NCBI RefSeq assembly: GCF_000721935.1
Contig: NZ_KL585383.1
Span: 202,046 to 214,464 of the forward strand
Length of the DNA stretch: 12,419 nt
Source of the DNA: Streptomyces sp. NRRL WC-3549
GTDB taxonomy: Bacteria; Actinomycetota; Actinomycetes; Streptomycetales; Streptomycetaceae
Direction of reading: 5' to 3'
In this document: one piece after another, positions 1,750-4,261 of the stretch
Numbering within the stretch: position 1 is the stretch's first letter
Layout of the letters: each line of letters begins with the position of its first letter
Notes under the pieces: model-generated
Databases searched by the model: none
What the model was told of the DNA's origin: nothing
Seen by the model: only the letters and a program-made list of their open reading frames with translations
Made by a program: the position numbers and the translations under genes

Positions 1750-2013
1750 TCAGATGGCGGCCTTCTTCAGGCGTCGCCGCTCACGCTCGGACAGGCCGCC
1801 CCAGATGCCGAAGCGCTCGTCGTTGGCGAGCGCGTACTCGAGGCACTCGGAGCGGACCTCACACGCGAGACAGACCTTCTTGGCCTCGCGGGTCGACCCG
1901 CCCTTCTCGGGGAAGAAGGACTCGGGGTCGGTCTGGGCGCACAGTGCGCGCTCCTGCCAGCCGAGTTCCTCGTCCGCGTCCTCGACCAGCAGTTGCTGGA
2001 ACAGCTCGGTCAT
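1750..2013 (-). CDS. whiB: Developmental transcription regulator WhiB (iron-sulfur Wbl family)
   Basis: The 87-residue protein carries all Wbl-family marks. Four cysteines at 25, 48, 51 and 57 (C-X22-C-X2-C-X5-C) ligate a 4Fe-4S cluster, the turn FGIWGGLS is at 68-75, and the basic tail RERRRLKK is at 77-84. Length and sequence fit Streptomyces WhiB itself rather than WhiD or WblA, and it is the orthologue of mycobacterial WhiB2. WhiB works with WhiA to switch aerial hyphae from growth to sporulation septation; WhiB2 is needed for septation in mycobacteria. The ATG at 2013 has GAGG seven bases upstream. It is divergent from the cysteine dioxygenase unit and ends at the two hairpins at 1671-1743. 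Its 5' region is long, relatively AT-rich and holds candidate regulator sites, as expected for a developmentally timed gene. No TTA codon is present, so it is not itself a bldA target. Confidence 0.96.
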   Translation of the reverse strand: MTELFQQLLVEDADEELGWQERALCAQTDPESFFPEKGGSTREAKKVCLACEVRSECLEYALANDERFGIWGGLSERERRRLKKAAI

Positions 2014-2083
2014 CTGCGCCCCTCGTCTGTCTCTTGCGTCCCCGTGATGCGGCCGTTACCGATGGCCGGACAACACGAGTGAA

Positions 2084-2113
2084 ATTACAAGTGTGTAGCT
2101 CTGGGCCAGTCAA
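2084..2113 (-). promoter_or_regulatory. Candidate whiB promoter (-35 TTGACT, -10 TGTAAT)
   Basis: Reading toward whiB, TTGACT (2113-2108) and TGTAAT (2089-2084) are separated by 18 bases, which puts transcription start near 2077 and gives a leader of about 64 bases. It fits a vegetative-type promoter better than anything else upstream. S. coelicolor whiB is known to have two promoters; I cannot tell which one this matches, if either. The -10 sits in an imperfect dyad (CACTTG...CTCGTG, 2074-2093) that could bind a regulator. Confidence 0.45.
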
Positions 2114-2140
2114 GCGAAGATCTGCTATTGGCCTCGGTAT

Positions 2141-2153
2141 TCACTCTGCGGAA
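2141..2153. promoter_or_regulatory. Candidate BldD-type operator upstream of whiB
   Basis: TCACTCTGCGGAA differs at one defined position (GG in place of GT) from the BldD pseudopalindrome, recalled as TnACnC(A/T)GnGTnA. BldD, the c-di-GMP-dependent repressor of Streptomyces development, is reported to target whiB. The site lies about 30 bases upstream of the candidate -35. It was found by eye and not scored against the genome background. Confidence 0.35.
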
Positions 2154-2224
2154 CCAAACGTATACAGAAAGTGTTCAAATCACCAAAAACCTGACATATG
2201 CCAGCGCCCTTCACCCTCGGCACT

Positions 2225-2239
2225 TCTCACCGAGTGAGA
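2225..2239. promoter_or_regulatory. Perfect palindrome TCTCAC-CGA-GTGAGA in the whiB-cdo gap
   Basis: This is a perfect 6-bp inverted repeat with a 3-base centre. Its half-sites TCAC/GTGA resemble BldD half-sites, but the spacing is two bases shorter than the BldD consensus, so BldD binding is doubtful. It may be an operator for another dimeric regulator of either divergent gene. Confidence 0.35.
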
Positions 2240-2427
2240 CGACCGGGGCCATTCCGATGTTTCGATTCGATCACCGACGCGACCAAGATCACAGCCGGGT
2301 CACGGTGCGTCAGCCGCTCGGCCGACGCGGTTGATGCGCCACCTTGCCCCTCTCGCCGATGCCAAAACCTTTCTCCCGACCCGGCAACCGAATGGGGTGA
2401 AAGATTGGGGCCAAATCGGGCATTGAG

Positions 2428-2457
2428 TTGACAGGGGGCAGACCGAGCCGGTCTGCT
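2428..2457 (+). promoter_or_regulatory. Promoter and operator-like repeat for the leader peptide and cysteine dioxygenase
   Basis: A consensus -35 TTGACA (2428-2433) is followed 18 bases on by a weak -10 TCTGCT (2452-2457). Transcription would then start at or within a base of A2465, the first base of the leader-peptide ATG. Between the two boxes lies a perfect inverted repeat, GCAGACC-GAGCC-GGTCTGC (2438-2456), with 7-bp arms and a 5-base centre. A repeat in that position is a classic place for a repressor, or for an activator that corrects a poor -10. Confidence 0.5.
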
Positions 2458-2464
2458 TGACCGC

Positions 2465-2560
2465 ATGCCAGCGACCGCAGCCACGTACCCGACCCGCACC
2501 CGTGGGTTCCGTACGGCTGTCCAGGCCCGCTGTTGCTGTTCCAGCTGTCACAGCTGTTGA
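2465..2560 (+). CDS. Cysteine-rich leader peptide (31 residues) upstream of cysteine dioxygenase
   Basis: A short frame from ATG 2465 to TGA 2560 encodes 31 residues: a basic N-terminal half (YPTRTRGFR at 8-16) and a C-terminus of CCCSSCHSC at 23-31, with five cysteines in the last nine residues. Four of the five cysteine codons are TGT, the less-used Cys codon in Streptomyces. No Shine-Dalgarno sequence precedes the ATG, but the promoter at 2428-2457 would place transcription start on it, so leaderless translation is likely. The next gene, 129 bases on, oxidises cysteine. Known poly-cysteine leaderless short frames in mycobacteria act as cysteine-responsive attenuators of downstream genes, so I infer the same kind of role. 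Synonymous third positions are only about 70% GC, below the neighbouring genes, so a purely chance frame is not excluded. Confidence 0.6.
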   Translation: MPATAATYPTRTRGFRTAVQARCCCSSCHSC

Positions 2561-2689
2561 AGCCCCGCGCTCCAGCTCCGACCAGCGCTCCCCGCACGCC
2601 TCCGCCGCGGCCCTTCCGCCTGCTCCACCGCAGTCCGGCTCCCCGCGGCACCCTCACGCGTATCCCCCTGCCGAGGAACCACCGCACCC
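2561..2689 (+). promoter_or_regulatory. C-rich, G-poor mRNA leader before cysteine dioxygenase (possible Rho-loading region)
   Basis: Hand count of these 129 bases gives C 71, G 29, A 15 and T 14, a C:G ratio of about 2.4 in a genome where the two should be near equal. Little structure is possible beyond a weak CCGCGG/CCGCGG pairing (2605-2610 with 2643-2648). Unstructured C-over-G RNA following a short translated frame is the usual setting for Rho-dependent attenuation. The ribosome site for the next gene, GAGGA, is at 2673-2677. Confidence 0.4.
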
Positions 2690-3190
2690 ATGAACAGCGA
2701 CAGCGACCTCTCGATCGCCGGCGACCTCCTCGAGGTCCAGCACCTCCTCCAGCCGGCCCGCCCGCACCCCACCACCGTGGCCGAGTTCGCCGGACTGGCC
2801 CGCACCGTCGCGGCCGACCGCGACCGATGGGCCCCGCTCGTCCGGTACGACACCACCACCCGCTGGTACCACCGGCTGCACACCGGGCCCGGCTACGAAC
2901 TCTGGCTGCTCAGCTGGGTCCCCGGCCAGGGCAGCGGCCGCCACGACCACGGCCTCTCGTCCGGTGTACTCACGGTGCTGGCAGGCGAGTTGACCGAACA
3001 CACGGAACGCGGGACACACACCCTGCGCCCCGGCGCCCAGCACGTCTCCGCCCCCGGACACGTCCACGAGGTCGTCAACGACTCCCTCGAAGGCGCCGTC
3101 AGCCTGCACATCTACTACCCGGGCCTCACCGACATGCCGATGCACACGGCCCGGTGCTCCCCCGCCACCCAGAACCCGATCACCGCCTGA
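2690..3190 (+). CDS. Cysteine dioxygenase family protein (cupin thiol dioxygenase)
   Basis: The 166-residue protein matches type I cysteine dioxygenases, which use mononuclear Fe(II) and O2 to convert L-cysteine to cysteine sulfinate in the cytoplasm. Cupin motif 1 supplies H85 and H87 (GSGRHDHG) and motif 2 supplies H126 (PGHVHEVVN), the three-histidine iron site. Ser138, His140 and Tyr142 (SLHIY) match the conserved Ser-His-Tyr proton-relay triad. The residue equivalent to mammalian Cys93 is Gly92, so no Cys-Tyr crosslink can form, as in other bacterial enzymes. Arg62 may hold the substrate carboxylate, but a close relative, 3-mercaptopropionate dioxygenase, cannot be excluded from sequence alone. 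ATG 2690 is chosen because GAGGA lies 12 bases upstream. The preceding Cys-rich leader peptide argues for cysteine as the physiological signal. Confidence 0.88.
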   Translation: MNSDSDLSIAGDLLEVQHLLQPARPHPTTVAEFAGLARTVAADRDRWAPLVRYDTTTRWYHRLHTGPGYELWLLSWVPGQGSGRHDHGLSSGVLTVLAGELTEHTERGTHTLRPGAQHVSAPGHVHEVVNDSLEGAVSLHIYYPGLTDMPMHTARCSPATQNPITA

Positions 3191-3296
3191 CCCCCACCCG
3201 TCGCCCGCCACCACCCCCACAATGATCAGGCTCCGCCTGACAGTCCCACCCGTCGCCCGCCACCACCCCCACACCGATCAGGCTCCGCCTGACAGA
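3178..3296 (+). repeat. 52-bp tandem repeat with hairpins between cysteine dioxygenase and fbiA
   Basis: Two units (3193-3244 and 3245-3296) differ at 2 internal bases (3222-3223 against 3274-3275) and at the last base. Each ends in the stem TCAGGC-TCC-GCCTGA. The end of the cysteine dioxygenase gene (3178-3192, including its stop) is a shortened form of the same motif lacking GGCT, so the array may have grown from the gene's 3' end. The stems are weak terminators at best; they could reduce readthrough into fbiA or protect the upstream mRNA end. Confidence 0.85.
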
Positions 3297-3304
3297 CTGT
3301 CGGT
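3293..3304 (+). promoter_or_regulatory. Candidate -10 for a leaderless fbiA transcript
   Basis: CAGACT (3293-3298) lies six bases before the fbiA ATG and resembles TAnnnT with one mismatch. There is no Shine-Dalgarno sequence before that ATG, so the mRNA probably begins at the start codon. The box straddles the end of the second 52-bp repeat and sits within the small inverted repeat GACAG-A-CTGTC (3291-3301). No good -35 is visible. Confidence 0.33.
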
Positions 3305-4261
3305 ATGCGCATTGTGGTTCTGGCCGGCGGTATCGGTGGTGCTCGTTTTCTGCGTGGCCTCAAGCAGGCCGCCCCGGACGCGGACATCACGGTGATCGGC
3401 AACACCGGCGACGACATCCATCTGTTCGGGCTGAAGGTCTGCCCCGACCTGGACACCGTGATGTACACCCTCGGCGGTGGCATCAACGAGGAGCAGGGCT
3501 GGGGGCGTGCGGACGAAAGCTTCCAGGTCAAGGAGGAACTCGCGGCCTACGGCGTGGGCCCGGAATGGTTCGGGCTCGGCGACCGTGACTTCGCCACCCA
3601 TATCGTCCGTACCCAGATGCTCGCCGCGGGCTACCCGCTGAGCGCCGTCACCGAAGCGCTCTGCGCCCGGTGGAAGCCCGGGGTCCGGCTGATCCCGATG
3701 TCCGACGACCGCGTGGAGACCCACGTCGCGGTCGAGACCGACGGCGAGAGCAAGGCCGTGCACTTCCAGGAGTACTGGGTGAGGCTGCGGGCGTCCGTCC
3801 CCGCCCAGGCGATCGTCCCGGTCGGGGCCGAACAGGCGAAGCCCGCGCCGGGCGTCCTGGAGGCCATCGCCGAGGCCGACGTCATCCTCTTCCCGCCGTC
3901 CAACCCCGTCGTCTCGGTGGGCACCATCCTCGCCGTACCGGGGATCCGGGAGGCGATCGCCGAGGCCGGGGTGCCGGTCGTCGGGCTCTCCCCCATCGTC
4001 GGGGGCGCCCCCGTACGCGGGATGGCCGACAAGGTGCTGGCCGCGGTGGGCGTCGAGGCCACGGCGTCGGCGGTCGCGCGCCACTACGGTTCCGGGCTGC
4101 TCGACGGCTGGCTCGTGGACACCGTGGACGCCGGGTCGGTGGACGAGGTGGAGGCCGCCGGAATCCGCTGCCTCGCGGTGCCCCTGATGATGACGGACGT
4201 GGACGCCACCGCCGAGATGGCACGTCAGGCCCTCACGCTGGCCGAGGAGGTACAGGCATGA
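3305..4261 (+). CDS. fbiA: 2-phospho-L-lactate transferase family (CofD/FbiA), coenzyme F420 biosynthesis
   Basis: The 318-residue protein is a full-length CofD/FbiA. It joins the phosphorylated three-carbon unit of a guanosine-diphosphate donor to the deazaflavin Fo, giving F420-0; in mycobacteria the donor is enolpyruvyl-diphosphoguanosine and the product dehydro-F420-0. Family marks are the N-terminal strand-loop [13 protein letters not shown] (6-18), NTGDD (33-37), [10 protein letters not shown] (90-99), the nucleotide-side loop [13 protein letters not shown] (197-209) and [11 protein letters not shown] (233-243). The ATG at 3305 is certain from the conserved [12 protein letters not shown] start, although it lacks a ribosome site, which suggests a leaderless mRNA. 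Its stop overlaps the fbiB start as ATGA (4258-4261), so the two enzymes are translationally coupled and act in succession. F420 serves redox enzymes in Streptomyces, including steps of some antibiotic pathways. From sequence alone the donor (lactyl or enolpyruvyl) is not decided. Confidence 0.95.

What the first reader, a model, noticed from the sequence alone, without database searches (positions are those of the whole stretch)
2465..2560. Unannotated Cys-rich leader peptide in front of a cysteine-degrading enzyme
Seen: a 31-codon frame ending CCCSSCHSC, with four of five Cys codons being TGT, whose ATG coincides with the predicted transcription start and lies 129 bases before a cysteine dioxygenase gene. 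Known: mycobacterial leaderless poly-Cys short frames are cysteine-responsive attenuators, and amino-acid catabolic operons can use inducible leader arrest (tnaC type). Inference: translation of this frame senses cysteine supply and sets dioxygenase expression. The downstream gene degrades cysteine, so the sign should be opposite to the biosynthetic cases: expression should rise with cysteine. That makes this either a catabolic version of the Cys attenuator or a cysteine-dependent arrest peptide.
Basis: partly seen in the sequence, partly recalled or inferred. Interest (0 to 1): 0.82.

Follow-up and report, generated by a model that had tools for sequence, protein, structure and literature searches.

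The report
Cysteine-codon leader before cysteine dioxygenase
In Streptomyces, a tiny gene ending in a run of cysteine codons sits in front of the gene for a cysteine-destroying enzyme, and its RNA can fold onto that gene's start, so ribosomes stuck for lack of cysteine would probably switch the enzyme on, the opposite of what one would expect.

Summary
The 31-codon frame at 2465-2560 is a conserved leader ORF of the whiB-CDO-cofD locus. An ATG-started Cys-rich frame precedes CDO in 86 of 89 loci (own genome plus unnamed relatives) and in 77 of 80 named genomes. It lies at a fixed distance from TTGACA (154 of 160 leaders). Its amino-terminal codons drift, while its TGT-rich tract is kept. The tract is complementary to the CDO start: 2528-2541 pairs over 14 bp with 2692-2705 in the predicted fold; over 86 loci this helix averages 11.5 bp against 6.0 bp for other windows. 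Best reading: a translation attenuator of the mycobacterial poly-Cys kind, in which ribosomes stalled on Cys codons open the CDO start. SCO3035, the S. coelicolor gene at this position, rises 6.5-fold with cysteine biosynthesis genes under H2O2 (PMC4991794). Translation, response and sign are inferred. 27 of 160 leaders lack a helix of 9 bp or more.

The parts
2428..2433 (+). -35 box TTGACA of the leader promoter (predicted)
   Evidence: TTGACA begins 36 or 37 nt before the leader ATG in 154 of 160 leaders
2452..2457 (+). -10 box TCTGCT (predicted; TCTCCT or TGTCCT in 115 of 160 leaders)
   Evidence: hexamer counts; 7 nt before the ATG, within the 4-9 nt range given for S. lividans start sites (PMC8079986, passages)
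2465..2560 (+). Cys-rich leader ORF, 31 codons, start codon at the predicted transcription start
   Evidence: conserved in 86 of 89 and 77 of 80 loci
2531..2557 (+). poly-Cys tract (codons 23-31: CCCSSCHSC; 4 TGT, 1 TGC)
   Evidence: 593 TGT against 163 TGC in the last 10 codons of 159 leaders, against 13 and 24 further upstream
2528..2541 (+). 5' arm of the sequestering helix (CGCTGTTGCTGTTC)
   Evidence: 14 pairs with 2692-2705, present in the minimum-energy fold
2692..2705 (+). 3' arm of the sequestering helix: last base of the CDO ATG through codon 5 and the next base (GAACAGCGACAGCG)
   Evidence: codon 3 is AGC in 146 of 151 Ser cases against 36% AGC in CDO bodies
2673..2677 (+). Shine-Dalgarno GAGGA of CDO
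   Evidence: sequence; a GAGG, GGAG, AGGA or AAGG site precedes the chosen start in 85 of 86 loci, starts having been chosen with that in view
2690..3190 (+). cysteine dioxygenase family gene (PF05995)
   Evidence: PDB relatives named cysteine dioxygenase

Best explanation
The frame is a translation attenuator. A leaderless mRNA begins with the leader ORF. When charged Cys-tRNA is plentiful, ribosomes cross the poly-Cys tract quickly, the tract RNA (2528-2541) pairs with the CDO start (2692-2705), and the 30S subunit cannot load well, so CDO is low. When Cys-tRNA is scarce, ribosomes stall on the TGT/TGC codons, cover the tract, and free the start, so CDO is translated. Shown by computation: conservation, promoter spacing, tract-start complementarity, codon constraint on both arms. 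Inferred: translation of the leader, stalling, and the sign. CDO would thus be co-induced with the cysteine supply genes, perhaps as a brake installed ahead of the cysteine surge; this last part is speculation.
For: Conservation: 86 of 89 and 77 of 80 loci. Helix: mean longest contiguous helix 11.5 bp against 6.0 bp in other windows; in 60 of 86 loci no other window tested reaches it. Ensemble folding puts at least 5 expected tract-start pairs in 75 of 86 loci. The window leader folds with z -3.9. Recoding the same peptide with synonymous codons weakens the pairing (mean z of the real tract -2.3 with GC-rich third bases, -1.4 with uniform codons). TGT, not TGC, is what pairs with ACAGC, and TGT is kept in the tract (593 of 756) but not outside it (13 of 37). 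CDO codon 3 is AGC in 146 of 151 Ser cases. Two in-genus orthologs without the leader (L205, L206; starts guessed) lack AACAGC after the start, and so does L274, whose Cys codons are spaced out. Two Streptacidiphilus loci use other sequences on both sides that still pair over 11 bp (L281, L282). Sign: a ribosome with the best-placed Cys codon in the A site covers the whole helix; with the stop codon in the A site it covers 56% on average (footprint size assumed). SCO3035 rises 6.54-fold in S. coelicolor with cysI, cysA, cysM and metN under H2O2; it is the next number after whiB = SCO3034, and whiB lies upstream of CDO in 80 of 80 named loci. Relatives carry Cys-containing leader frames near cysA2 (25 of 26 loci), cysI (12 of the 13 best PF01077 loci) and metN (6 of 10) too.
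Against: The energy-only test is weak: a median 7.7% of other windows pair as well, and only 34 of 86 loci reach 5%. Swapping partners between loci costs only 0.25 kcal/mol, so there is no covariation inside the genus. 27 of 160 leaders lack a helix of 9 bp or more. They include eight members of one clade (L050, L051, L053, L056, L060, L061, L077, L286), whose AUG is mostly in another predicted structure; L283, L284, L277, L278; and S. coelicoflavus L254 (8 bp), the named locus I take to be nearest S. coelicolor, so the helix is shorter just where the expression data come from. L256 keeps AACAGC without a leader that I found. The Streptacidiphilus tract L281 pairs just as long with Streptomyces starts (12 bp). 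In 45 of 133 leaders a ribosome at the stop codon also covers at least 80% of the helix. A cysteine-destroying enzyme made at low cysteine looks wasteful. The H2O2 data are RNA levels, and the authors credit the SenS-SenR system. That SCO3035 is CDO rests on gene order, not on a sequence fetched here.
Confidence: 0.6

Rival explanations
1. One reading: high cysteine causes the nascent Cys-rich peptide to arrest the ribosome, which opens the CDO start, so CDO rises with cysteine.
For: Same anatomy: a stall on the tract opens the start. The sign suits a catabolic enzyme.
Against: Amino-terminal codons show no amino-acid selection: synonymous fraction 0.276 against 0.295 neutral in group A, 0.349 against 0.317 in group B. 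Number and position of Cys vary (3 to 8 per leader). SCO3035 moves with cysteine biosynthesis genes.
Confidence: 0.12
2. Rho-dependent or other transcription attenuation: leader translation decides whether Rho ends transcription in the C-rich stretch between leader and CDO.
For: The 129-nt gap holds 71 C and 29 G. The S. coelicolor change is at RNA level. Rho was proposed for mycobacterial cys leaders (PMC1262725, passages).
Against: It does not explain the complementarity to codons 1-5 of CDO. Rut sites were not tested. No intrinsic terminator on the + strand in 2050-3310.
Confidence: 0.15
3. The tract is kept as an RNA structure or a binding site, and the Cys codons are a by-product.
For: The TGT-NGC repeat fits RNA pairing; N varies among Cys, Arg, Ser and Gly.
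Against: The repeat could be read in three frames (Cys, Ala-Val, Leu), yet the Cys frame is open, with ATG and TGA, in 86 of 89 loci although leader length varies from 21 to 40 codons (loci were picked by Cys content, so only the low miss rate counts). S. albidoflavus L274 keeps five Cys codons in a spaced pattern.
Confidence: 0.1

Closest known systems
Mycobacterial poly-Cys leaderless short ORFs (Ms5788A, Ms4527A; Canestrari et al. 2020, not held here; recalled abstract plus passages in PMC13236596, PMC9031893, PMC13091356)
   Same: Leaderless-type short ORF, Cys codons near the stop, in front of a sulfur amino acid gene, structure predicted to close the downstream start.
   Different: The downstream gene degrades cysteine; five CDO leaders match none of NF042933, NF042934, NF042936; the paired target in most Streptomyces is codons 1-5 of the gene.
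Streptomyces leaders near cysA2 and cysI (found here)
   Same: Short Cys-containing leader frames on sulfur genes in the same genomes; G000 has both (L110, L117).
   Different: They are of the RRxVDLxR type: the cysA2 and cysI peptides of G000 pass the NF042934 cut-off (29.7 and 32.9 against 27 bits) and have one or two Cys, not a run.
Other leaders on CDO genes: L171 (another family of the order), paralogs L194 and L202, Streptacidiphilus L281-L284
   Same: Cys-containing short frame in front of a CDO family gene.
   Different: Different peptide types; pairing to the start found for L281, L282, doubtful for L171, absent for L283, L284.
tnaC (E. coli tryptophanase leader; recalled)
   Same: Leader in front of an amino-acid catabolic gene.
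   Different: No selection on amino-terminal residues; opposite predicted sign.

Membership tests
Poly-Cys leaderless attenuator (mycobacterial type) | Short ORF with a run of Cys codons near its stop | tested here: met
   86 of 89 and 77 of 80 loci
Poly-Cys leaderless attenuator (mycobacterial type) | Leaderless: transcription starts at the ATG | tested here: inconclusive
   TTGACA spacing fixed in 154 of 160; no start-site data
Poly-Cys leaderless attenuator (mycobacterial type) | mRNA structure closes the downstream start and is opened by a ribosome on the Cys tract | tested here: inconclusive
   Structure predicted: helix of at least 9 bp in 133 of 160 leaders, at least 5 expected pairs in 75 of 86; opening not tested
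Poly-Cys leaderless attenuator (mycobacterial type) | Downstream gene responds to cysteine limitation | not testable with these tools
   Only indirect: SCO3035 up under H2O2 with cys genes
NCBIfam Cys-rich leader peptides NF042933, NF042934, NF042936 | Peptide matches the model | tested here: not met
   0 families at E up to 1 for five CDO leaders (window and L049; L026, L012, L005); the cysA2 and cysI leaders do match
Intrinsic-terminator attenuator (trp type) | G+C-rich hairpin plus U run between leader and gene | tested here: not met
   None on the + strand in window 2050-3310
tnaC-type arrest peptide | Conserved nascent residues needed for ligand-dependent arrest | tested here: not met
   No purifying selection seen on amino-terminal codons; the Cys residues themselves are kept
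Known structured RNA (Rfam) | Match to a family model | tested here: not met
   0 matches at E up to 1 in window 2000-2800

The most novel reading that the evidence does not exclude
Streptomyces wires an enzyme that destroys cysteine to the same starvation-triggered ribosome-stall switch that turns on cysteine synthesis: a feed-forward brake made ready before the cysteine surge, with its switch written in the leader's Cys codons and in the first five codons of the enzyme gene. Different leader types in front of CDO genes in other genera and paralogs suggest that this wiring arose or was kept more than once.
Probability: 0.42. Interest if true: 0.78.

Novelty: new variant of a known kind. Interest (0 to 1): 0.62.

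Why it matters
It would carry the cysteine 'ribulon' idea from mycobacterial cysteine synthesis genes to a cysteine catabolic enzyme in Streptomyces. It gives a sharp, cheap test of a paradox: a degradative enzyme that seems to be switched on by lack of its substrate. It also shows a leader in which the same nucleotides act as sensor codons and as antisense to the start of the controlled gene, which would explain why TGT is kept in a G+C-rich genome. No family model covers the leader, so annotation pipelines that rely on such models will miss it.

Tried and rejected
Energy-only duplex comparison of tract and start against other windows: only weakly selective; the contiguous-helix count is sharper. 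Partner swaps inside Streptomyces: no covariation. A hairpin at the leader stop (AGCTG..CAGCT): supported only in the MLAN group, where the pair at columns 10-39 reads A-U in 30 and G-C in 10 of 48 sequences; RNAalifold gives no structure for the 61 sequences of the other group. Poly-Cys frames in front of cysA2, cysI, metN and mec genes of relatives: none with a TTGAC box when both orientations are read properly; other leader types instead. My first scans of those loci read minus-strand loci the wrong way round and so undercounted; one search replaces them. In one search the L026 reference was one base out of frame; replace it, with the same outcome. A genome-wide count of TGYTGYTGY in G000 (414 per strand, fewer than the reversed control) was not informative. 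I saw no paper on a leader of Streptomyces CDO in the listings of searches; some listings show only the best 20 (6), and most subscription papers are not held.

Full report
What was checked. The window lies in genome G000; its nearest named CDO relatives are Streptomyces. whiB runs leftward at 1750-2013, the leader frame lies at 2465-2560, CDO at 2690-3190 (PF05995) and cofD at 3305-4261 (PF01933).

Conservation. CDO was searched in 150 genomes; 126 match at E 0.001. The 89 ortholog loci read (L001-L089, own genome included) gave a short frame with at least 3 Cys in its last 12 residues in 86. L083 and L086 have none; the CDO start of L089 reads N. An ATG start is available in all 86, and all end with TGA. 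Two of the 86 (L080, L088) look weak to me. A scan of named genomes kept 80 of 95 relatives; 77 of the 80 have the frame. Of the three misses, L280 has a GTG-started leader with 11 Cys and L274 one with five spaced Cys; L256 has none that I found. Some named loci repeat unnamed ones; 163 loci with a leader gave 159 distinct leaders, 160 once L171 was added. whiB lies upstream in 80 of 80 and cofD downstream in 76 of 80 named loci.

Promoter. TTGACA begins 36 or 37 nt before the ATG in 154 of 160 leaders, and the hexamer at -13..-8 is TCTCCT or TGTCCT in 115. S. lividans leaderless promoters have TTGACn and a -10 box 4-9 nt from the start; their usual -10 is TAnnnT, which this is not (PMC8079986, passages). 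The leaderless start is therefore likely, but not measured.

What is selected. In the amino-terminal part, single-difference codons are synonymous about as often as expected without selection (0.276 against 0.295 in 69 group A leaders, 0.349 against 0.317 in 48 group B leaders; 42 other leaders were not used, and pairs are not independent). In the last 10 codons Cys is TGT 593 times and TGC 163 times; further upstream 13 and 24; in CDO bodies 0 and 10 from codon 9 on, 1 and 13 over the aligned part. TGT is preceded by GC in 544 of 606 cases. The CDO start reads ATG or GTG plus AACAGC in 145 of 159, and Ser codon 3 is AGC in 146 of 151 although AGC is 36% of Ser codons in CDO bodies.

Pairing. 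GCUGU in the tract is complementary to ACAGC at the CDO start. In the window 2528-2541 pairs with 2692-2705, 14 bp, in the minimum-energy fold; the whole leader folds with z -3.9. Over 86 loci the longest contiguous helix averages 11.5 bp (14 bp in 30 loci) against 6.0 bp for other windows downstream, and in 60 loci no other window tested reaches it. Ensemble folding gives at least 5 expected tract-start pairs in 75 of 86. Synonymous recoding of the tract weakens pairing (mean z -2.27 and -1.41 under two codon models), as does recoding of CDO codons 2-5 (mean z -1.75). Results against: by energy alone a median of 7.7% of other windows do as well and only 34 of 86 loci reach 5%; swaps between loci cost only 0.25 kcal/mol; 27 of 160 leaders have no helix of 9 bp or more, among them S. 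coelicoflavus L254 with 8 bp. In one clade (L046, L049-L051, L053, L056, L060, L061, L077) the AUG is paired with probability 0.91-0.99 in ensemble folds, in most cases in another structure. The helix covers the G of AUG and codons 2-5, not the Shine-Dalgarno sequence itself. L205 and L206, which lack the leader, lack AACAGC; L256, without a leader that I found, keeps it.

Outside the genus. Streptacidiphilus L281 and L282 have different tracts and starts that pair over 11 bp (shuffle fractions 0.006-0.019), though the L281 tract also pairs over 12 bp with Streptomyces starts. L171, from another family, pairs over 9 bp with its Shine-Dalgarno region but is not clearly beyond chance (0.18 and 0.035). 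L015, with an altered CDO start, reaches only 8 bp in the window tested (0.134 and 0.311) and 10 bp when the window is widened. L275 pairs over 10 bp (0.016 and 0.07). L283, L284, L277, L276, L080 and L056 show no such helix. Of 34 distant or paralogous CDO loci, a Cys-rich frame with a TTGAC-like box was seen in L171 and L202; L194 carries the same peptide type as L202 without the box; L189, L197 and L201 had frames that look accidental.

Sign. With a footprint from 18 nt before to 11 nt beyond the start of the A-site codon (assumed), a ribosome at the best-placed Cys codon covers all of the helix; at the first Cys codon of the tract 65%, at the stop codon 56% on average, under half in 56 and at least 80% in 45 of 133 leaders. 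So the switch should answer mainly to stalls on Cys codons, and lack of Cys-tRNA would give CDO on. In S. coelicolor 0.15 mM H2O2 raised 28 genes (M at least 1.5); they include cysI, cysA, cysM, metN and SCO3035 (6.54-fold), and none rose in the mutant lacking HbpS-SenS-SenR (PMC4991794, section 20 part 1). SCO3035 is the next number after whiB = SCO3034 (PMC4255298, passages), so by gene order it is CDO. This supports the same direction as cysteine synthesis, but a transcription factor could cause it.

Known systems. Mycobacterial poly-Cys leaders are the nearest kind (Canestrari 2020, not held; recalled, and passages). Seliverstov 2005 described Cys leaders before mycobacterial cys operons (PMC1262725, passages). 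The S. lividans table of eight leader peptides has none for cysteine (PMC8079986, passages). In relatives of the window genome, Cys-containing leader frames lie near cysA2 in 25 of 26 loci, near cysI in 12 of the 13 best PF01077 loci (L116-L128) and near metN in 6 of 10. The cysA2 and cysI ones are of the NCBIfam NF042933/NF042934/NF042936 kind, whereas five CDO leaders match no model.

Verdict. New variant of a known kind.

Noticed in passing
window 3193-3295: A 51-nt intergenic stretch between CDO and cofD is repeated in tandem (96% identical, spacing 52), each copy with the palindrome-like CAGGCTCCGCCTG.
   Followed up: partly
window 2440-2454: Inverted repeat AGACC-GAGCC-GGTCT inside the leader promoter; a possible operator, not generally kept in relatives by eye.
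   Followed up: no
L110 and the other cysA2 loci L090-L115 except L114: Leader frame with KRRAVDLCRVA near cysA2 in 25 of 26 loci; the G000 one scores just under the NCBIfam Ms5788A cut-off (43.6 against 45 bits).
   Followed up: partly
L157, L160, L162-L164 (mec loci): A leader frame ..LLVARLHVDLCRLASA follows the mec gene in 5 of 15 loci, probably in front of other genes (cysO-cysM is a guess).
   Followed up: no
L146-L149, L152, L155 (metN loci): Leader frame ending GARCMCR..F near metN in 6 of 10 loci, like the S. lividans metL of PMC8079986; it holds Cys as well as Met codons.
   Followed up: no
L194, L202: Streptomyces CDO paralogs preceded by a frame ending RRVHMDLVRYAGCVCRPSC, a further leader type on a CDO gene.
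   Followed up: no
L046-L061 (part), L077, L286: In this clade the tract can pair with an internal ACAGCAAC-like element and the AUG often sits in a local hairpin; perhaps a different switch layout.
   Followed up: partly
L280: Streptomyces sp. SCUT-3: GTG-started leader with 11 Cys codons in front of CDO.
   Followed up: no
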